A stretch of 21,200 nucleotides of DNA from a virus: the IMG/VR virus record IMGVR_UViG_3300010413_000204, positions 1-21,200 of that record; one strand, written 5' to 3'. Shown in pieces: positions 3,479 through 21,200 of this stretch. The position numbers and the translations under genes are program-made. The stretch's first letter is position 1. Every line of letters starts with the position of its first letter. The notes beneath the pieces were generated by a model. The model worked only from the letters and a program-made list of their open reading frames with translations. It was not told the origin of the DNA and did not search any database.

Positions 3479-5011
3479 TTAGCCTTCGCGGATTTCCATA
3501 ATCGTTTGAAATTCATTCACCATGTAGACGATATAATCGATCACAAATTCGTCGTTGTCGATCCGGCAAGTATCGCCGGGGTTTAAATAGGGGTCAATAT
3601 GTCCGAATCGATGCAAAATGTTTCCGCTTTGAATGCTTCTATAAATCGACTTTTCAAGCGTTATAAGCTGATTTTGAAAGCTTTCTGTTTTGTATCCCGA
3701 AAGGGTTATCGACCGATTTTTCGCGCCTTCGTCGGTTCTGATATCGTCGATTGCGACCCGAAGGATTTCCTCTAAAAATTGGATCGATCCGGCGATCTCA
3801 TAACCCAAGCTGACAACGATTTCACCGTTTGACCGATCGGTGATTTCTTGCGCGTTTTCAAATCCCGGCAAAACGACCGAAAGATAAGTCGGATTGTCGG
3901 TTCGTTTGCGCGCCTGAAAATTTGAAATTTTGACTTCGATGTCGGTTGTATCATCAGCCGCGCCGGTTATAGTGCAAAAATAGCGGGGAATAGCCCGCGC
4001 CTTGTTTTGTGCAAACCAAGCCGACCAGTTGAAAGCGCTAATCGAATCGCCGATTGATATTGATTCGTCGATATCGATAAAAATATCTAAAACAACTTGA
4101 CTACTTTCGACGATTGAAACGGATTCGGAAACATCGATCGCGGCAAGATCCATCGCCGCCAAAATATTTTCAATGATCGATATGTTTTCATAACTTCCGG
4201 GGATCAAAGTAAATTGAAAAAGTTCGACCCCGACAATTTCTTCAAATGCGATCTGATCGGTTGCGACCGGGTCCCATGAATCGAAATCGATCCCGAAATT
4301 TTCGGTTATCGTCAGATTATCGATTCCAAGCGGCGGAAGCGTATCAAAAAGAATCGAAGCGCTTTCTTGAATTGCTATCCCTTGGAAATAGTCAAGTTCG
4401 CCTGAAAAATCCAAGGCGACGGTATGCGTTTCTGTCAAAGCGATCGTTTCAACCGCTTCAAGCGCCGAATAGTTGACGATCAATTCGGCGCATTTCGACG
4501 TCGATCCATTATAAGTATAAGGTCTTCTATATCGGCTTGTATCCGAACCATCGTTCCGGATATGGATTGTTAGCGAATTCCCGGATTCCCAACCGTCCCG
4601 ATTTATGATTTCGTTGATAATTGAAATGATACTAGGTGAATCATAGGTCCCTTCTGCCGTCCATCCGGAAACATTGTTCCAATCGATTTTTGCCGAAGTC
4701 ATTGTTCGGCTGATTAGATCGGCCCCGTTTGCGATCGCCGTCGCGTCGTCTTGATCTTCGCCGTATATGTCAAGATTGACGACGGTTCCCGAATCCGTCG
4801 CTTGTGCGATGAACCTTATTTTTGCCGAATTTATTGTCGCGCCTTTTGGAATATTGACGCCCTGAAAACGGAAAAAGGCATAATATAAAATTAATGCGGT
4901 CGATCCCTTCCCCATATATACAAAACTTGCGGAGTTATTGAAGCTTCCGCCGTCATAAAGGGAATATCCGTCGTCGGCCCCGGCTTGTATTTGAATTGAA
5001 AAATCTGTCAT
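3479..5011 (-). CDS. Mosaic tail-tip protein: DNRLRE-like N-domain, short repeats, hub-like C-terminus
   Basis: This 510-residue protein starts at an ATG overlapping the previous TAA (TAATG). Three regions are visible. Residues 1-183 resemble a DNRLRE-type jelly-roll: aromatic-rich strands, FRFQGVNIPKGATINSAKIRF, a long strand-rich middle, then a closing AELIVNYSA. Residues about 187-327 hold six or seven degenerate repeats of 20-25 residues built on the pattern xIxIxEx with acidic spacers, for example ETIALTETH, GIAIQESAS, LTITENFG, NISIIEN, VSIVESS and SISIGDS. Residues 328-510 look like a baseplate or tail-hub beta domain ending in GDTCRIDNDEFVIDYIVYMVNEFQ. It lies between small tip proteins and the peptidase/Kelch gene. 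A role in tail tip assembly with surface binding by the N-domain is inferred. Confidence 0.75.
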   Translation of the reverse strand: MTDFSIQIQAGADDGYSLYDGGSFNNSASFVYMGKGSTALILYYAFFRFQGVNIPKGATINSAKIRFIAQATDSGTVVNLDIYGEDQDDATAIANGADLISRTMTSAKIDWNNVSGWTAEGTYDSPSIISIINEIINRDGWESGNSLTIHIRNDGSDTSRYRRPYTYNGSTSKCAELIVNYSALEAVETIALTETHTVALDFSGELDYFQGIAIQESASILFDTLPPLGIDNLTITENFGIDFDSWDPVATDQIAFEEIVGVELFQFTLIPGSYENISIIENILAAMDLAAIDVSESVSIVESSQVVLDIFIDIDESISIGDSISAFNWSAWFAQNKARAIPRYFCTITGAADDTTDIEVKISNFQARKRTDNPTYLSVVLPGFENAQEITDRSNGEIVVSLGYEIAGSIQFLEEILRVAIDDIRTDEGAKNRSITLSGYKTESFQNQLITLEKSIYRSIQSGNILHRFGHIDPYLNPGDTCRIDNDEFVIDYIVYMVNEFQTIMEIREG

Positions 5012-11922: not shown

Positions 11923-12312
11923 TTAACTGGTTATCGCATAGCGCAAGGCGACGACGGCTTTTCCGGCTGTCAAGGCTTCGACGGCGACGGTAAAGGTCAA
12001 TTGAGTATAAGCCGCCGTCAAAATCATGTTTGCCGCCGTCCCGTCGGGGACAATGTCGACAAGACCGGCGGCAAGCGAAGCAATCGCAGTCGCCGCAAGA
12101 ATATCGGCAGTCCCAACCGCTTTGATTGCGACCGTCGCCGATCCGCCTGAAGCAAAGTCGGTGAAAACCTGAAGAAAACCGTCCATGACGACCGCTGAAG
12201 GCGGCAAAAGCTTGGGTCCGACCAAAATGTCGCCGACCGCGCCGCCAAGCTTGGCGAAATCATATTCAAAAAGGGCAAGACCGACCCGTCCTTCCAAACT
12301 TGAATTTTGCAT
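11923..12312 (-). CDS. Putative capsid decoration/head protein
   Basis: The product has 129 residues and is rich in alanine, valine, glycine and threonine, with no cysteine. It has an N-terminal FEYDFAKLGGAVGDILVGPKL, and a hydrophobic beta pattern SAVVMDGFLQVFTDFAS, then repeated ALA/AAG strands, ending with AVEALTAGKAVVALRYAIT. It follows the major capsid gene, where lambda has gpD, and the start has an AAGGAAGG ribosome binding site. It is not clearly homologous to gpD. I recall similar small beta-rich proteins next to capsid genes in other phages, often annotated as hypothetical. A decoration or head-fibre role is inferred from position. Confidence 0.6.
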   Translation of the reverse strand: MQNSSLEGRVGLALFEYDFAKLGGAVGDILVGPKLLPPSAVVMDGFLQVFTDFASGGSATVAIKAVGTADILAATAIASLAAGLVDIVPDGTAANMILTAAYTQLTFTVAVEALTAGKAVVALRYAITS

Positions 12313-12339
12313 TTTAAACCTTCCTTTTTTTTAGTTGAT

Positions 12340-12401
12340 GCCGGGGAAACCCTTTTTTATCGCTCCGGGGAAGCAAAGGAAAGCTGATCGGGTTCCCCGG
12401 C
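12340..12401 (-). other. Intercistronic alternative hairpins between capsid and decoration genes
   Basis: On the plus strand GCCGGGGAAACCC (12340-12352) pairs with GGGTTCCCCGGC (12390-12401) with one bulged A. A third copy CCGGGGAA (12365-12372) can pair with the same right arm. The two stems are mutually exclusive. Neither is followed by a T-run on the transcribed strand, so a simple terminator is unlikely. A message-stability or processing element is more plausible. Confidence 0.5.
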
Positions 12402-12414
12402 AAGAATTAAAAGA

Positions 12415-13869
12415 TTAATTTCCCATGTTGAGATAAAGCCCGCGCCAATCGACGGCTTTTGCGCCGACATCGATTCGGACTTTGTATTCCGTACCGTCAA
12501 CCGACCATCCCGCTTTTGTTTCAAGGTATGGGGTCTGAACTCCATTTAGGAAAAACGCGACAACCGTTTTTCCGCGCGGCCCGGCCAAATACCAAGCGGC
12601 GGCGTCGACGTCGTCCAATCGCGGTTCATAAACGCGCGTGAAATATGATCCCGAATAAAGATTTTTTCGGGTCGATGCCAAGGACGAATCGGTCGCGATC
12701 GTATCGGTATCACTCCATTGAATCGTCTGAAAAAAGACTTCCGAAATTCCTTCGATCGTAACCGGAGCGATAAAAAATTCGGGTCTGATATTCAATCGCC
12801 GAAGCCCTTGAAGGTCTTTTTGCGTTTTCATCGCCAAGATGCCCGCGCCGATCGTCGCCGATCCGGGGACGGCCCCCGACGCCTGATAATTTCCATGATC
12901 GGCATGAAAAAGCGCGGTTCCATCGCCCATAGCGGCATTCGCCGTCAAGACTGCATAGACGACATCGGCGACCTTTCGGCTTGCAGACTCCCCATGTTGC
13001 GCGGGAATTCGGGTCAACGCGCCGAGGTCGTCATTGATAATCGTCTGACGGGTTATCGCAAAAAGCTTGCCATAGGTTGCAATCTGATATTGTTCTTGCG
13101 CTTCAGTGATTTTCCCATAACGATATTCGCCGGATTCGGGGATTTCTTCAAGGTCGGCCATTTCCGACGCGCGCGGAAGCGAATGAATTTTGAAATCGGC
13201 GACCTGATCAGTTGCGACCCAAGTTCGCCAAGTTTCCGGCGCGGTATCCCAACCCGAAAAAAGCGATTTGTTCGCGACGTTCGCAAGGATCAAGGGAAGA
13301 TCCGAAGTCGCAAGCGCGCGCCCGATCATTTCCATAGGCGACCCGGCGGTCTTCAGATTCCCGACCCGAAGGGCTTCGCGCGCGAGTTCGCGCAAGCTGA
13401 ATCCCATTAAATCGCGATGTCCTTCGGCGAATTTTTCGGGTTTGTAATCGATCGCCGACCGCGCCAAAAGCGCATCGGTCGCCGCCGCCCTGAATTTGTC
13501 TTGCGAATCGGCGATAATTGTTGCGGGCGGATGGTAGTTCAAGCCGGATTCGGGGATCGTTTTCAAAATCGCCCGATAAGCTTCGACGACGCTTTTTCCT
13601 TCCCGGATCAATTTCAAGGCAAGATCCGGCTGATCGAAACGCTTTCCGAGCGAATCGATTTCGATAATCCGCGACCTTTCTTCGCCGGTCGCTTCCGCCC
13701 TGATTTCATCGATCATAGCTTGCGGATCTTCGACTTTTTTGTCCGGTTCCGGTTCCGGTTCCGGGTCTTTCCTGACTTCAAGGCTTTGCAAAAACTGCCA
13801 AGCCTGATCTTCGGTTGCGTCCGGGTCAAGTCCCCGGCTGACAAGAAATTCTCTAAGTTTTGGGTCCAT
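12415..13869 (-). CDS. Internal in-frame start: scaffold plus major capsid protein without protease
   Basis: An ATG at 13867-13869 in the protease/capsid frame is preceded by AAGGGGG at a six-base distance, one of the best Shine-Dalgarno sequences in the window. Translation here gives 484 residues, M206 onward, beginning MDPKLREFLVSRGLDPDATE. It would supply scaffold plus capsid subunits in excess of protease, as nested genes do in lambda (C/Nu3). The signal is clear in the sequence; use of the start is inferred. Confidence 0.6.
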   Translation of the reverse strand: MDPKLREFLVSRGLDPDATEDQAWQFLQSLEVRKDPEPEPEPDKKVEDPQAMIDEIRAEATGEERSRIIEIDSLGKRFDQPDLALKLIREGKSVVEAYRAILKTIPESGLNYHPPATIIADSQDKFRAAATDALLARSAIDYKPEKFAEGHRDLMGFSLRELAREALRVGNLKTAGSPMEMIGRALATSDLPLILANVANKSLFSGWDTAPETWRTWVATDQVADFKIHSLPRASEMADLEEIPESGEYRYGKITEAQEQYQIATYGKLFAITRQTIINDDLGALTRIPAQHGESASRKVADVVYAVLTANAAMGDGTALFHADHGNYQASGAVPGSATIGAGILAMKTQKDLQGLRRLNIRPEFFIAPVTIEGISEVFFQTIQWSDTDTIATDSSLASTRKNLYSGSYFTRVYEPRLDDVDAAAWYLAGPRGKTVVAFFLNGVQTPYLETKAGWSVDGTEYKVRIDVGAKAVDWRGLYLNMGN

Positions 13870-16365: not shown

Positions 16366-16423
16366 TTTACGGGTTTTTACGGGTAAAAAGGGCTTTTTTA
16401 CTGTTTTTTACGGGTTTTTACGG
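16366..16423 (-). repeat. Direct repeat pair of TTTACGGGTTTTTACGG flanking a short hairpin
   Basis: Copies start at 16366 and 16407. Each is made of two TTTACGG units. Between them lies GTAAAAAGGGCTTTTTTAC, which can fold on itself. The second copy overlaps the 3' end of the small HTH gene. A regulator binding site or a leaky terminator is possible. Confidence 0.5.
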
Positions 16424-16631
16424 TTGACAGGGTCGCTTTTTTCGTCGAATTTTCAGACAATCCGAGGTCGATTTGCTTCTTTCGCCAATCGTCAATCTTG
16501 TCGGTGTCCGATTCCCATCCGCCGGTTATTTTAACCGCCGGAAAGTCCCTTTCCCGAATCCATTTCAAGATCGTTGATTCGCTTCGATTGCAAATTAAAG
16601 CGATATTTTTCATCCCGGAAATGCCGCCCAT
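16398..16631 (-). CDS. Small winged-HTH DNA-binding protein, second of a tandem pair
   Basis: The 77-residue product contains KNIALICNRSESTILKWIRE (a helix-turn-helix) followed by DFPAVKITGGWESDTDKIDDWRKK, the wing-and-helix layout of excisionase or MerR-type N-domains. The start follows the stop of the upstream HTH gene without any gap, with AAAGGTGA as ribosome binding site. The C-terminus is basic. It may help the terminase or regulate late genes. No partner is shown by the sequence. Confidence 0.7.
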   Translation of the reverse strand: MGGISGMKNIALICNRSESTILKWIRERDFPAVKITGGWESDTDKIDDWRKKQIDLGLSENSTKKATLSTVKTRKKQ

Positions 16632-16931
16632 TTATTCACCTTTGTTCTTTTTGGTCCGGCGATAGCGTCTTTTTTTGGGTTTTGGTTCCGCTTTTTCTTG
16701 CGGATCGGGCGATCTTTCCGTCTTTTCTGATAAGGATTCGTCGGGTTCCTTCGCTTTTTTGATTATACCGTCGCGCCAAGCTTGAATATCGGCTTTGTTC
16801 GAATAAAGCCTTGCGCCAATTCGATCGACCGGCATTTTGTGTTTAACGATCCAATCGATTATTGTTGCAAGTGAAATATTTAAAAATTGTTGGATTTCTT
16901 CAGCGCCTTTTAAATCATATTCTTTCGGCAT
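16632..16931 (-). CDS. Small winged-HTH DNA-binding protein, first of a tandem pair
   Basis: The 99-residue product has the same fold as the next gene: GAEEIQQFLNISLATIIDWIVKHKMPVDRIG, cited here as positions 9-39, then a wing and ADIQAWRDGI. Residues 60-99 form a long acidic/basic tail rich in lysine, arginine, glutamate and proline, probably disordered. It begins just after the terminase large subunit gene with AAAGGGGG upstream. The wHTH resembles that of Nu1-type terminase small subunits, so a packaging-related role is plausible but unproved. Confidence 0.7.
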   Translation of the reverse strand: MPKEYDLKGAEEIQQFLNISLATIIDWIVKHKMPVDRIGARLYSNKADIQAWRDGIIKKAKEPDESLSEKTERSPDPQEKAEPKPKKRRYRRTKKNKGE

Positions 16932-16947: not shown

Positions 16948-18807
16948 TTACCATCTTGATTTTTTCCCGGTTTTCTTCGAATTCGTCGGCCTTGCCGCCG
17001 GGGTCGAAGCTTTTGTTATTTTGATCCGATCCGGTTTAATCGAATCCCAATCGGTAATATGCGCCATTCCCGCGCGCAAAGCGGCGGCATAGGCCAAGAC
17101 TTCGCAGTCAAGGACGTCGTTTCGTTCACGAACCTTGACCCATTCAAGAATCGGGAATCCGTTTCGAAAATGAGTAACCTTTTTTTCAGCCGTTAACTGC
17201 AAATAATATTCGTCGTCGATCCCAAAAGGGAAATGGTAAAACCCATGCCCGGCGGATTTGGCCGACAGCCGCGAATAAATTTGCGCCTTTGCGGTATCGC
17301 TTCCGACCGTCCACAAAAGGCAACCGTCCTTGATCGTTTCACCCTGCCAGTTGACGTCGACTTTGTTCGGGCGATTGACGACGGGCTTTCCTTGGATCTT
17401 CGACCCCTTCGTTGCCATAGTCAAAACCGGACGCGACCGGCAAAAATTATAAATCGCTTGCGGCAAATAACCCGAATCGATAGCCATTGTTTTGATAAAA
17501 AGCTGAGTCCCGGATTCATGGACAAAAGGTTGCAAAAGAAGATTTTCAAGCGCTTTCCAAACGTCGGGTTTGTTCGGATCGCCGAAAAGTTCGGTCCAAA
17601 GCACTAGCCAAGACTGTTCGCCCTGACCCCAACCGCGAACGATAACCGGCAAGCGATTCTCTTGAACGTCGACGCCTGCCGTCAAGAAGCAAACCGGATC
17701 GGGCGGCTTCAAGATCGAATAGACTTCAGCCCGATTCTTTAAAATAACCCAATCCGGTTGACTTCCCGCTTCGTCCCATACTTCGGCAAGCCTTGTATTT
17801 TTCCAGACCTGAAGGCGTTCCGGGCTTTGCTTGACTTCTAAAAATTCGTTGACGATCTGCAACCAAGAAACCCAACCGATCGGACTATATAACGAACTTA
17901 TATGATATCCGCGCTTGCGACGATCCGGGAATTTGGCGACCCATTTTCCTTTCAAAAGCATTTGCGGCTTGTGACTTTCGTCAATTCCTTCGTGACAGAA
18001 TTTGCATTCATACCAAACCGCGATCGCCTGACCCGATTCATCGCGCTTGAATTTGATCCCCCGTTTCAAATTCTTTCCGCCCCAATCCAAAACTTGAAAG
18101 CCGCCGCAAAATGGACAGGGGACTTGATAGAATCTCTGATCGCTTGCGATGAAATGCTTTTCGATCTTCGATATCCCCTTGATCGTCGGGGTCGAAACCC
18201 TGAATATTTTTCGCCGCGCGGAAAAGGCGTCCGTTCTTTTTTCCGCAAGTTCCGCCGGGTCGCCTTCGTCGCCGACGGTCGGCGGAAAGCCGTCAAGATC
18301 GTCAAGGAAAAGATATCGGATTGATTTCGATCGGTAGTTCGCCGGGGAATTTGCGCCGGACATGAAAAGAATTCCGCCGGGAAATTTCTTTCTGAGCGTT
18401 GAATTCCCGGCGGTCTTGGTCGTTCTTTTGCCGAATTTTGCCTTCAGTTTCGGGCTTTCTTCGATCGTCGGCGCGAGTTTTTGTTGCGAGTGTTCTTCGG
18501 CCAATCTGTCAGTCGGGAAAATCCAAAGCATCGGCCCCGGCGCGGCGTCGATTATATATCCCAACCAGTTATTTCCGACTTCGGTCAAGCCTAATTGGGT
18601 CCCCTTCATTACTGAAATATCGTCGACCCCTGAATAAACGCCCAACGAATCGGCGATTTCCCGGACATAAGGCGTCCGATCGGTTCGGTATTGGCCCGGT
18701 TCCGACGACGATTCCGAAGGCAAGATCCTGAATTCGTCCGACCATTTGGAAACCGAATATTCAGGCGAAGGCGTTATCCCTTCAACTATCGCTTGGATCA
18801 ATTCCAT
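16948..18807 (-). CDS. Terminase large subunit (GpA family)
   Basis: This 619-residue protein packages DNA into the prohead using ATP. The ATPase part has a Walker-A-like loop at 67-75 (MKGTQLGLT) and Walker B at 165-172 (YLFLDDLD). A zinc-ribbon-like set of cysteines is at 231, 234, 268 and 271. The nuclease part shows the acidic residues Asp380 (AGVDVQE), Asp444 (AIDSGY) and Asp567 (NDVLDCEVLAYAAA). Length and order agree with lambda gpA. The C-terminus is basic. The start is an ATG within the preceding small gene, with which it overlaps by 26 bases. Confidence 0.95.
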   Translation of the reverse strand: MELIQAIVEGITPSPEYSVSKWSDEFRILPSESSSEPGQYRTDRTPYVREIADSLGVYSGVDDISVMKGTQLGLTEVGNNWLGYIIDAAPGPMLWIFPTDRLAEEHSQQKLAPTIEESPKLKAKFGKRTTKTAGNSTLRKKFPGGILFMSGANSPANYRSKSIRYLFLDDLDGFPPTVGDEGDPAELAEKRTDAFSARRKIFRVSTPTIKGISKIEKHFIASDQRFYQVPCPFCGGFQVLDWGGKNLKRGIKFKRDESGQAIAVWYECKFCHEGIDESHKPQMLLKGKWVAKFPDRRKRGYHISSLYSPIGWVSWLQIVNEFLEVKQSPERLQVWKNTRLAEVWDEAGSQPDWVILKNRAEVYSILKPPDPVCFLTAGVDVQENRLPVIVRGWGQGEQSWLVLWTELFGDPNKPDVWKALENLLLQPFVHESGTQLFIKTMAIDSGYLPQAIYNFCRSRPVLTMATKGSKIQGKPVVNRPNKVDVNWQGETIKDGCLLWTVGSDTAKAQIYSRLSAKSAGHGFYHFPFGIDDEYYLQLTAEKKVTHFRNGFPILEWVKVRERNDVLDCEVLAYAAALRAGMAHITDWDSIKPDRIKITKASTPAARPTNSKKTGKKSRW

Positions 18808-19009: not shown

Positions 19010-19579
19010 TCATTCCTTCGCATCCGCGCCAATCTTCGATAGGTTCGACAGTTGCCGGACATATTCCGTCAGAACGTCCTTGATCTCTTTTTGGATGATA
19101 GCAAAACATCGGCTTTGATCCGATTCCGCCGCGACAAGCGGCGAAATCCGCGCCGCTATATTCAAAAGCGATTCGCGCGCAAGGCGCGCCGCCCGAAACG
19201 CCTGATTTTTAACGTCGGATTTTTTGATCCATTGTCCTTGTTTTATTTCCCATTGTAGCCTTTTTTCCTTGGCTTTGTAAAATTCGGTTTCGGCCCGCGA
19301 CTTTGCGAAGCTTGAATCGCCCGCCGGTTTTTGCGAACGATCGTTCTTTTTTTCTTGGCTTCGGCTTTTGATTTGGCGCGCCTTGCGGAAGTTGGGGTCC
19401 ATCGCGGCATCATACAACTTTTTTGCAAGCGGGAATTTTAGAAGCGGAAGTTTTTTCCCGTCCTGAAAAACGATCGCCTTTTCGAAGATCCCGTCGCGCT
19501 TGGCGCGCGAAACCATTTGCTTTGTGACTCCGATCCTTTTTCCAAACTCTGAAAAAGTTATCAGTTCGGTTTTTGCCAT
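19010..19579 (-). CDS. Terminase small subunit (Nu1-like)
   Basis: The 189-residue product has an N-terminal winged-HTH: LITFSEFGKRIGVTKQMVSRAKRDG, cited as positions 6-30, then a strand pair and LAKKLYDAAMD. The middle is charged and probably helical. The C-terminal half contains AFRAARLARESLLNIAARISPLVAAESD (positions about 136-163), a pattern of phage DNA-packaging small subunits. It recognises the packaging site and recruits the large subunit, and the gene follows directly after a repeat array. The start codon ATG has no clear Shine-Dalgarno sequence; the gene could be translated weakly or from a leader. Confidence 0.85.
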   Translation of the reverse strand: MAKTELITFSEFGKRIGVTKQMVSRAKRDGIFEKAIVFQDGKKLPLLKFPLAKKLYDAAMDPNFRKARQIKSRSQEKKNDRSQKPAGDSSFAKSRAETEFYKAKEKRLQWEIKQGQWIKKSDVKNQAFRAARLARESLLNIAARISPLVAAESDQSRCFAIIQKEIKDVLTEYVRQLSNLSKIGADAKE

Positions 19580-20020
19580 TGGCGTTCTATTGTATTGTAT
19601 TCAATTCAACATAATAGCATAACATTAAATCGAATCGACCCTTTCGGGCTTGGTATAAAATTGGATCATATTGAATCCAATTTGATGTTAATTGACCCTT
19701 CCGGGCTTTGAACGAAACGCAATACTAACATACCGAAAGGCATTATACATTATTGACCCTTGCGGGCTTTGAACGAAACGTAACACTAAAGTAAAGTAAA
19801 CCATACGAAGCCATCTTCCCTTTCGGGCTTTCAACTTTATAAGATAGTATCGGATAAAACATAACTCTATCAGACATTATTTTATCGACCCTTGCGGGCT
19901 TTTAATGACACGATATTACATCAGACATTATGAGATCAAATATTACATTAAATATCTACCCTTGCGGGCTTTTAACGATACAAGATTACATTTGATTCTA
20001 TTCTATTCAATGGCTAAAAA
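19580..20020. other. Gene-free region of about 440 bp holding the repeat array
   Basis: No convincing gene lies here: the longest minus-strand frames are about two dozen codons and the sequence is A/T-rich except for the repeat cores. Candidate -10 elements (TATAAT, TATTAT) are present on the minus strand, but I find no matching -35, so I call no promoter. The stretch separates the RAMP/small-gene pair from the terminase operon and is the expected place for a cos or pac site. Confidence 0.8.
19639..19968 (-). repeat. Six-copy degenerate repeat array with GNRA-type hairpin cores
   Basis: Hairpin cores lie at 19639-19648, 19696-19705, 19757-19766, 19818-19827, 19889-19898 and 19959-19968, spaced 57, 61, 61, 71 and 70 bases. 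On the minus strand each reads CCC-GNAA-GGG, with loops GAAA, GGAA, GCAA, GAAA, GCAA and GCAA, so the only varying loop base is the free N of a GNRA tetraloop. On the plus strand the unit extends as (T/C)GACCCTTNCGGGCTTT(N)AACGA; copies 2 and 3 match over about 36 bases and copies 5 and 6 over about 38. Four copies are preceded on the plus strand by ACATTA. Interspaces are A/T-rich and mostly unique. Options are a phage RNA leader, a CRISPR-like array serving the upstream RAMP protein, or small-terminase binding sites (cosB/pac). Confidence 0.75.
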
Positions 20021-20227
20021 TCAAAGTTCCTTTAGCTTTTGCGCCGCTTCCGAAAGCATCTTCGCCCGTTCCTGATCGCCCAAGGCATTGATTAAACGGG
20101 CTTCGGCAAACTGATTCATCGCGACAGAATGCCCGATTTTGTGAATTGCATTCGCGGAATCATTCGTCTTTTTGCCTTCATTATGCGCGATCATGGCTTT
20201 TATCAGTTCTTTCCTTGCTTCGATCAT
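20021..20227 (-). CDS. Small helical protein of unknown function
   Basis: The 68-residue product starts at an ATG preceded by AAAGGGGGTGAT at a three-base distance, an almost perfect match to the 16S 3' end; this decides the start over longer upstream frames. The sequence is entirely helix-compatible: EARKELIKAMIAHNEGKK, then AIHKIGHSVAMNQFAEAR and a C-terminal ERAKMLSEAAQKLKEL. It has no cysteine or catalytic pattern. It lies 43 bases after the RAMP gene and directly before the repeat array, so it may form one transcription unit with both. In Type III and IV systems small helical subunits accompany Cas7 proteins, but no specific similarity is seen, so this is only an analogy. Confidence 0.75.
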   Translation of the reverse strand: MIEARKELIKAMIAHNEGKKTNDSANAIHKIGHSVAMNQFAEARLINALGDQERAKMLSEAAQKLKEL

Positions 20228-20270
20228 CTTATCACCCCCTTTCATCAGCATTATTAGAATCCGCTTGAAT

Positions 20271-21005
20271 TTATACAAGTTCCGCCTTTGTGACTTTCCA
20301 TTGTCCATATCCGGCCCCCCTTGATCCGCCTTGCCCGTACCATGCGGATTGGTGAATCGCTTCGATGATTTTGTTCGGGTCGGAAAGCAAGACGCCGAAT
20401 TGCTTGTTGTTCGGATTGATCTGCAATTTATAGGAAACCTTGAAGGGGTGCCGGATGATTTCATAATAGGCAAACCCTTTGACCGGGCCGACCGGCTGTT
20501 GGCCTTCCAATGTTTCAAAAGGTTTCTTTATCACTTGCCCGTCAAGCTGATAGAAATAAACATGATGCGGCAAAATCTTGATAAATTTCCGCAAATGCTT
20601 TTTGCTTGGTTTCCCCTTTTGATTCTTCTTTCCGTCCTGATAGAAAAAATCAGGGTTTAGGGCGTCCAAGGCATCGCGCAAAGCCCCAAAGTAGGAATGC
20701 GCGCCAAGGAAAGGAAACCCACCATTTAAAGAATCTTTTCGAAAACGGTTGATCGGCGCTGAATATGGCTTCTTGACTTTGGCGACATAGGCTTGAAGGA
20801 CTTCGGTCGCCTTCAGGGTTTCGCCCTGACCGATTAAAAGTTCGACTTCAGCCGATACGATTTTAAATTCAAGTTTTGAATGATCCTGATTCGTTCCGTC
20901 AAGTAGGTTTTCAATGTTTTCAGGCGTCGCCGCGCGCCAATCGGACTCGCTTTCGCCTTCAACCTTGATCTGATAGATACTTGTCTGATTTGGATAACTT
21001 GTCAT
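20271..21005 (-). CDS. Cas7/Csm3-like RAMP-superfamily protein
   Basis: This 244-residue protein shows the order of motifs found in Cas7/Csm3-type RAMP proteins. An N-terminal strand with VELLIGQGE (54-62) corresponds to the LxIGxG strand. FPFLGAHSYFGALRDAL (97-113) corresponds to the conserved IPGSSLKGALR motif that follows the thumb. A basic, lysine-rich loop (124-140) follows, and the glycine-rich C-terminal loop YGQGGSRGAGYGQW (223-236) corresponds to the GGxxxxGxGxV signature. Such proteins bind RNA, usually along a guide. No other Cas gene is visible in the window. The start has AAAGGGG upstream. A phage-encoded lone RAMP could serve RNA binding, defence against other phages, or inhibition of the host system. 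The superfamily call is fairly strong; the function is unknown. Confidence 0.6.
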   Translation of the reverse strand: MTSYPNQTSIYQIKVEGESESDWRAATPENIENLLDGTNQDHSKLEFKIVSAEVELLIGQGETLKATEVLQAYVAKVKKPYSAPINRFRKDSLNGGFPFLGAHSYFGALRDALDALNPDFFYQDGKKNQKGKPSKKHLRKFIKILPHHVYFYQLDGQVIKKPFETLEGQQPVGPVKGFAYYEIIRHPFKVSYKLQINPNNKQFGVLLSDPNKIIEAIHQSAWYGQGGSRGAGYGQWKVTKAELV

Positions 21006-21020: not shown

Positions 21021-21032
21021 GCGCTTTCGCGC
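21021..21032 (-). promoter_or_regulatory. GCGC-GAAA-GCGC hairpin in the RAMP leader
   Basis: On the minus strand four bases pair around a GAAA tetraloop, and the next bases are AAAGGGG, the ribosome binding site of the RAMP gene. The hairpin core resembles those of the array in loop type but not in stem sequence. It may shape translation of the RAMP mRNA. Confidence 0.4.
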
Positions 21033-21050
21033 AATTCAATTTAATTTGAT

Positions 21051-21119
21051 TCAATCGTAAGTGATCCGATCGAATCCTAATGGATCGCCGGGAAAATGTC
21101 CCGGAATGATAAACGCTTT
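21051..21119 (-). pseudogene. Possible small gene remnant with orphan ribosome binding site
   Basis: AAAGGGGGTGAT at 21123-21134 is identical to the ribosome binding site of the 68-residue gene. At the same distance where that gene has ATG, this one has AAA. The frame from there reads 22 sense codons with a protein-like sequence (FIIPGHFPGDPLGFDRITYD) to TGA at 21051. Loss of a start codon would explain it. It is short and could be coincidence. Confidence 0.3.
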
Positions 21120-21134
21120 TTTATCACCCCCTTT

Positions 21135-21200
21135 CTAAGTGCCTGAAAAGTCAATCGATTTTTCGCCCTTTTTTCTTTCGATTTTTCGGGCGAATCTCCG
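21135..21200 (-). CDS. C-terminal end of an upstream gene (5' part outside window)
   Basis: From the window edge the minus strand reads 21 sense codons to TAG at 21135. The sequence is lysine- and arginine-rich and ends IDFSGT. It is followed directly by a strong ribosome binding site. It is probably the tail of a gene that extends to the right, but with so few codons the frame choice is uncertain. Confidence 0.35.
   Translation of the reverse strand, partial: RRFARKIERKKGEKSIDFSGT

What the first reader, a model, noticed from the sequence alone, without database searches (positions are those of the whole stretch)
20271..21005. Lone Cas7/Csm3-like RAMP protein encoded by a phage
Seen: the motif order LLIGQG, FPFLGAHSYFGALRDAL and a C-terminal glycine-rich YGQGGSRGAGYGQW. 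Known: Cas7-family RAMP proteins of Type III and IV systems share IGxG, PGSSxxGALR and a terminal G-rich loop and bind guide RNA. Inferred: this is a RAMP outside any visible cas operon, next to terminase genes, so it may be an RNA-binding protein with a phage-specific function.
Basis: partly seen in the sequence, partly recalled or inferred. Interest (0 to 1): 0.82.

Follow-up and report, generated by a model that had tools for sequence, protein, structure and literature searches.

The report
Divergent phage VIPR-like RNA-guided system
A phage gene that looks like a CRISPR backbone protein sits beside a previously unnoticed array of five-base-periodic guide-like RNA repeats, so it is probably not a lone protein but a strongly diverged relative of the VIPR RNA-guided systems that phages use against each other (described in a 2026 preprint).

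Summary
No profile library or PDB sequence search recognises it, and AlphaFold models were too poor to test the fold. The DNA on both sides of the gene holds eight tracts of 8-11 pentamers, all in one 5-nt register (N-R-T-N-N; T in 76/80 units, R in 68/80; G = 192 against 26 +/- 7 in shuffles). Six tracts end in a conserved AAGCCCGNAAGGG hairpin with a GNRA-type loop. A pattern search led to phrog_4652, a phage RAMP-like family that includes phage SUSP1. Nearly every phrog_4652 locus I checked has GGY/NN-type pentamer arrays beside the gene. That is the published VIPR system (Vipr protein plus vrRNA guides; bioRxiv preprint, PMC13142463). The window is best read as a divergent VIPR locus inside the packaging module of a lambda-like phage, with a relaxed scaffold: two fixed and three free positions per repeat instead of three fixed and two free. 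Fold, RNA expression, target rule and targets are untested or not found. New variant of a known kind.

The parts
20271..21005 (-). RAMP/Vipr-like protein, 244 aa; IGxG (56-61), GAHSxxGALR helix (97-113), C-terminal G-loop (223-236)
   Evidence: ORF list; colinear with phrog_4652 Viprs in alignment A7; no library hit
21032..21086 (-). T0: vrRNA-like tract of 11 NRT/NN pentamers upstream of the gene
   Evidence: strongest period-5 signal in the record, p about 4e-8; units
21021..21032 (-). T0 tail hairpin GCGC-GAAA-GCGC (GNRA tetraloop)
   Evidence: sequence; folded
20021..20227 (-). small ORF (68 aa) just downstream, with its own ribosome-binding site; possible accessory (vap) gene
   Evidence: sequence; no clear family for the in-frame stretch 20021-20401
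19972..20021 (-). T1 tract, 8 pentamers
19959..19971 (-). tail 1 AAGCCCGCAAGGG
19902..19958 (-). T2 tract, 10 pentamers
19889..19901 (-). tail 2 AAGCCCGCAAGGG
19831..19888 (-). T3 tract, 11 pentamers, all RT
   Evidence: chain of 11
19818..19830 (-). tail 3 AAGCCCGAAAGGG
19770..19817 (-). T4 tract, 9 pentamers (most degenerate)
19757..19769 (-). tail 4 AAGCCCGCAAGGG
19709..19756 (-). T5 tract, 9 pentamers; 3' part nearly identical to T4
19696..19708 (-). tail 5 AAGCCCGGAAGGG
19652..19695 (-). T6 tract, 8 pentamers, partly self-complementary
19639..19651 (-). tail 6 AAGCCCGAAAGGG
19580..19638 (-). T7 tract, 10-11 pentamers, runs up to the TerS start codon; no GNRA tail
   Evidence: chain of 10
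19010..19579 (-). terminase small subunit (context)
   Evidence: phrog_57, E 7e-20
16948..18807 (-). terminase large subunit GpA (context)
   Evidence: PF20454/PF05876

Best explanation
A divergent VIPR system. The 244-aa protein is a Vipr-type RAMP. Transcripts of the flanking DNA give several 60-75-nt guide RNAs, each a tract of 8-11 pentamers followed by a small GNRA hairpin tail. Vipr subunits would assemble along the tract, each holding the fixed R-T of one pentamer with thumb and G-loop and presenting the variable bases, so that the complex binds a matching double-stranded DNA with 3 target bases per 5 RNA bases and represses it, most likely in a competing phage, prophage or satellite. 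Shown here: the ORF and its RAMP-type motifs, the arrays, their single register, tails and strand, and the same layout beside most phrog_4652 Viprs checked. Inferred: RAMP fold, expression and processing of the RNAs, protein-RNA binding, DNA recognition, repression, and the identity of the target.
For: Pentamer register: over 80 units column 3 is T in 76, column 2 is A/G in 68, the other three columns are near-uniform; G = 192 against 26 +/- 7 (max 53) in 1000 dinucleotide shuffles. Four RT chains of 8 or more pentamers lie in the array (minus strand) against none in 3.09 Mb of background; one further chain of 8, on the plus strand at 19634, lies in the same array. The best period-5 windows of the record flank the gene. 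Six AAGCCCGNAAGGG tails, 0.07 expected with up to one mismatch, all with GNRA-type loops; T0 also ends in GCGC-GAAA-GCGC. Relatives: the only RAMP-like protein found by G-loop pattern, L059, is phrog_4652. phrog_4652 loci wV8, LESphi2, MakoManhole, L097 and phiHSIC have period-5 arrays beside the gene. SUSP1, the published VIPR phage, is in the same hit list. PMC13142463 describes Vipr, vrRNAs of 9-16 GGY/NN pentamers 'or a related consensus', 3' tails and flanking intergenic location. L097, with a TerL 45% identical to the window's, has its VIPR in the packaging module too. The window scaffold NRT is a relaxed GGY: purine then pyrimidine in the same order.
Against: No statistically detectable sequence similarity between the window protein and Vipr or Csm3 profiles; the test has little power, since several undoubted Viprs also fail it. 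Fold not confirmed. No close homologue in IMG/VR, phages, plasmids, genome contigs or about 1,190 sampled genomes. The scaffold lacks GG, and T4/T5 are degenerate. No target found in 1.67 Mb of loci, in phage records (contiguous reading of four tracts) or in 398 Pseudomonadota genomes (T3 only). The 68-aa ORF is not a recognisable vap.
Confidence: 0.8

Rival explanations
1. The array is a DNA packaging or regulatory site (cos/pac, terminase-binding repeats) upstream of terS, and the RAMP-like gene is an unrelated neighbour.
For: T1-T7 lie directly upstream of terS, the usual cos position in lambda-like phages; hairpins recur at 57-71 nt.
Against: The same 5-nt register also occurs upstream of the RAMP gene (T0). 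None of about 60 loci with 26-65% identical TerL shows such an array except L097 with its deletion relatives L094/L095, where the arrays belong to a vipr. GNRA loops and the constant/variable column structure fit RNA scaffolds.
Confidence: 0.08
2. A lone Csm3/Cas7-like RAMP captured from CRISPR with an RNA-binding role, using no adjacent guide array; the pentamer DNA is neutral degenerate tandem repeat.
For: The motif order IGxG, GAHSxxGALR, SRGxGYG resembles Csm3 proteins extracted.
Against: Three columns are near-uniform while one is T in 76/80 across eight tracts with conserved tails, not what slippage produces. The hhalign score against Csm3 is within the shuffle range.
Confidence: 0.07
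3. A new RNA-guided class built on a RAMP-like or unrelated fold that converged on pentamer guides, not homologous to Vipr.
For: No sequence similarity to Vipr detectable; different scaffold.
Against: Shared G-loop, helix motif, colinear alignment, array layout and phage setting.
Confidence: 0.05

Closest known systems
VIPR systems (Vipr + vrRNA; bioRxiv 2026.04.26.720920, PMC13142463); phrog_4652 as in SUSP1, wV8, LESphi2
   Same: Phage-borne small RAMP-like protein; flanking intergenic tracts of about 8-12 pentamers with fixed and hypervariable columns; hairpin tail after the tract; array plus one tract on the other side of the gene (as in SUSP1).
   Different: Protein 244 aa with a 44-residue N-terminal extension and no detectable sequence similarity; scaffold NRT/NN (information 0.04, 0.62, 1.64 bits) instead of three conserved columns (GGT, GGC or GCA in the relatives); minimal 13-nt tails; no recognisable vap; seven-tract array abutting terS.
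Class 1 CRISPR Cas7 RAMPs (Csm3, Cmr4, Csf2; PF03787)
   Same: Order of IGxG, G-x-S/H-x-x-GALR and C-terminal glycine-rich loop motifs.
   Different: No cas genes or CRISPR repeats in the window; PF03787 does not match it even at E 10 in its own record.
TIGR-Tas (PMC12045711)
   Same: Phage-encoded compact RNA-guided system with an array.
   Different: Tas proteins use a different guide-RNA-binding domain (Nop-type, from my own knowledge); nothing like it was seen here.

Membership tests
VIPR | RAMP-fold protein with RRM core, thumb and G-loop | tested here: inconclusive
   Motifs and G-loop present; AF2 models unusable; hhalign without power
VIPR | Intergenic vrRNA tracts of tandem pentamers flanking vipr | tested here: met
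   Eight tracts of 8-11 units in one register, both sides of the gene
VIPR | GGY/NN scaffold or a related consensus | tested here: inconclusive
   NRT/NN: R and Y positions agree with GGY, first position free. The preprint's fig. S17 of related consensuses could not be read
VIPR | Structured invariant 3' tail | tested here: met
   AAGCCCGNAAGGG hairpin after six tracts, GCGC-GAAA-GCGC after T0; T7 lacks one
VIPR | Accessory vap gene | tested here: inconclusive
   Only a 68-aa ORF without a family; the record ends 195 nt upstream of the gene
VIPR | Vipr clade in phylogeny | not testable with these tools
   No homologues and similarity too low to place
VIPR | vrRNA expression and copurification with Vipr | not testable with these tools
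   Experiment needed
VIPR | dsDNA recognition by the 1-nt skip rule | tested here: inconclusive
   No match in 1.67 Mb of loci at any skip length beyond controls, nor for T3 in 398 Pseudomonadota genomes; host and sample unknown
CRISPR-Cas type III/IV (Cas7) | Recognised Cas7/RAMP family match | tested here: not met
   No Pfam, NCBIfam or PADLOC match
CRISPR-Cas type III/IV (Cas7) | Other cas genes and CRISPR array | tested here: not met
   None among the window ORFs scanned; repeats are 13-nt tails between periodic tracts, not repeat-spacer

The most novel reading that the evidence does not exclude
A VIPR type with a two-base scaffold (RT) and three readable bases per pentamer, so that the guide reads consecutive target triplets without the skipped base: a continuous code written discontinuously in RNA.
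Probability: 0.2. Interest if true: 0.88.

Novelty: new variant of a known kind. Interest (0 to 1): 0.66.

Why it matters
VIPR was reported only in 2026 as a possible forerunner of CRISPR. A member with no detectable sequence similarity but the same gene-plus-array layout would extend the family, show that the RNA scaffold can drift from GGY to NRT, and allow a direct test of whether the third base of each repeat is read. It also shows that such systems can be found from array periodicity alone when protein searches fail.

Tried and rejected
Library and PDB sequence searches: nothing. Rfam on the array: nothing. Searches for close relatives in viral, genome, plasmid and phage collections, in 31 virus records and in about 1,210 genomes: nothing convincing; three weak hits proved spurious. 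Tail-array pattern in IMG/VR: none. hhalign against Vipr and Csm3 profiles: not above controls. Contiguous decoding of T3 hit Aeromonas phage 25 gp51 over 22 nt (E 6e-3), but the remaining units mismatch, so I treat it as chance. Small ORFs through the tails (seen by eye) change frame between units, so coding was rejected.

Full report
What is there. The window is an IMG/VR virus record that ends at 21200. It carries a lambda-like packaging and structural block on the minus strand: TerS, GpA-type TerL, portal and capsid. The ORF in question, 20271-21005, is on the minus strand, 244 aa, with a ribosome-binding site (GAAAGGGGAAGCAAAATG).

What database searches say. Pfam, PHROGs, NCBIfam, PADLOC and PDB sequences give no significant match. 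IMG/VR, phages, plasmids and genome contigs give no close relative, nor do about 1,190 sampled genomes from three phyla. PF03787 does not match the record. Structure prediction failed twice for lack of homologues, so the fold is not demonstrated here.

How the relatives were found. A DNA pattern for the glycine loop, scanned over IMG/VR, returned 60 stretches. The 43 usable frames included one convincing RAMP-like protein, L059 1293-1916. It belongs to phrog_4652, 'unknown function' (E 2e-30), and has a weak RAMP-superfamily match in its G-loop (E 0.11; E 0.0017 for one genome). tblastn shows this family in 122 phage records, mainly Felix O1-like phages including phiSUSP1 and SUSP2, plus LESphi2, MakoManhole and Listonella phages. 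A further member, L097, lies in a phage whose TerL is 45% identical to the window's.

The key observation. Beside the phrog_4652 genes lie blocks of degenerate pentanucleotide repeats: GGT-NN in wV8, GGC-NN in LESphi2, MakoManhole and L097, GCA-NN in phiHSIC. L059 shows a weaker period-5 signal. A period-5 scan of all loci at a strict threshold reported only phrog_4652 loci and two deletion relatives of L097. A literature search then found the explanation: PMC13142463 (bioRxiv, April-June 2026) describes VIPR systems, in which a phage RAMP protein, Vipr, binds vrRNAs made of 9-16 GGY/NN pentamers with a structured 3' tail and recognises double-stranded DNA through the NN dinucleotides with one skipped base, repressing competing phages and prophages. 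Its model phage, SUSP1, carries a phrog_4652-type protein by my tblastn search.

The window has the same layout. The strongest period-5 signal in the 21.2 kb lies directly upstream of the gene, with further peaks between the gene and terS. One comparable peak elsewhere, at about 4240-4305, lies inside a coding gene and is a single window. Cutting at the six AAGCCCGNAAGGG repeats (0.07 expected) leaves tracts that share one register. Of 80 pentamers, 76 have T at position 3 and 68 have A/G at position 2; positions 1, 4 and 5 are near-uniform. G is 192 against 26 +/- 7 for shuffles, maximum 53. Note that phases were chosen per tract, in the shuffles as well. Runs of eight or more consecutive RT pentamers occur four times in the array on the minus strand (and once on the plus strand within the same array, since AT is self-complementary) and never in 3.09 Mb of other phage and genome DNA. 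The tails have GCAA, GAAA or GGAA loops on the gene strand, a GNRA-type RNA signature, and the upstream tract ends in GCGC-GAAA-GCGC. This points to the gene strand as the transcribed strand.

How it differs. In the phrog_4652 relatives three columns per pentamer are conserved; in the window only two are (0.62 and 1.64 bits; position 1 has 0.04 bits). Read in the same order, N-R-T is a relaxed G-G-Y. Position 1 differs in purine content between tracts (p = 0.012): it is mostly purine in T0, T6 and T7, mostly pyrimidine in T2 and T4. This leaves open whether it is a loosened scaffold position or a third readable base. The protein is longer and shows no detectable similarity to Vipr or Csm3 profiles; that comparison also fails for several undoubted Viprs against the Csm3 profile, so it neither supports nor refutes membership. 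Alignment with six Viprs is colinear across the N-terminal strand, the GAHSxxGALR helix and the G-loop, which is suggestive only.

Targets. Decoding with 0-3 skipped bases gave nothing clearly above controls in 1.67 Mb of fetched loci apart from the tracts themselves (two 2-nt-skip matches exceed the shuffle maximum by one position). Contiguous readings of T0, T2, T3 and T7 gave no credible phage match, and T3 under the 1-nt skip rule gave none in 398 Pseudomonadota genomes with two mismatches. Host and sample are unknown, so absence is weak evidence.

Verdict. Most likely a divergent VIPR system (0.8). Fold, RNAs, binding, code and targets remain to be shown. The preprint's supplement, which lists related scaffold consensuses, could not be read here, so I cannot say whether this belongs to one of the seven described types or is an eighth.

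Noticed in passing
L097 2858-4190; L094 2861-2941; L095 6921-7011: L097 carries a complete phrog_4652 VIPR between its terminase and portal genes. L094 and L095 are near-identical on both sides (99.7% and about 96%) but lack about 1.27 kb, joined inside the GGC pentamer tracts and leaving one solitary vrRNA-like tract: a natural deletion of the vipr cassette.
   Followed up: partly
L156 (phiHSIC) 12151-12431: The phrog_4652 gene ORF22 is followed by three tracts with a GCA/NN scaffold rather than GGY/NN.
   Followed up: partly
PHROGs phrog_4652: The family labelled 'unknown function' can be annotated as Vipr, an RNA-guided RAMP, on the strength of the preprint and the flanking arrays.
   Followed up: yes
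L076 (wV8) 2759-2816 and 4152-4209: The repeats annotated as 'DR_4' in phage wV8 lie at the tails between vrRNA tracts.
   Followed up: partly
window 21032-21086 and 19652-19695: Tracts T0 and T6 are self-complementary and fold into 10-bp stems better than shuffles (z -2.7 and -2.8); an AT-phased scaffold favours this, so its meaning is unclear.
   Followed up: no
window 20232-20243 and 21121-21135: The same strong Shine-Dalgarno-like string AAAGGGGGTGAT precedes the 68-aa ORF and occurs again upstream of T0 with no obvious start codon after it.
   Followed up: no
window 16398-16931: Two adjacent small HTH_17 proteins between TerL and portal; L097 has a similar-sized 78-aa protein downstream of its TerL.
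   Followed up: no
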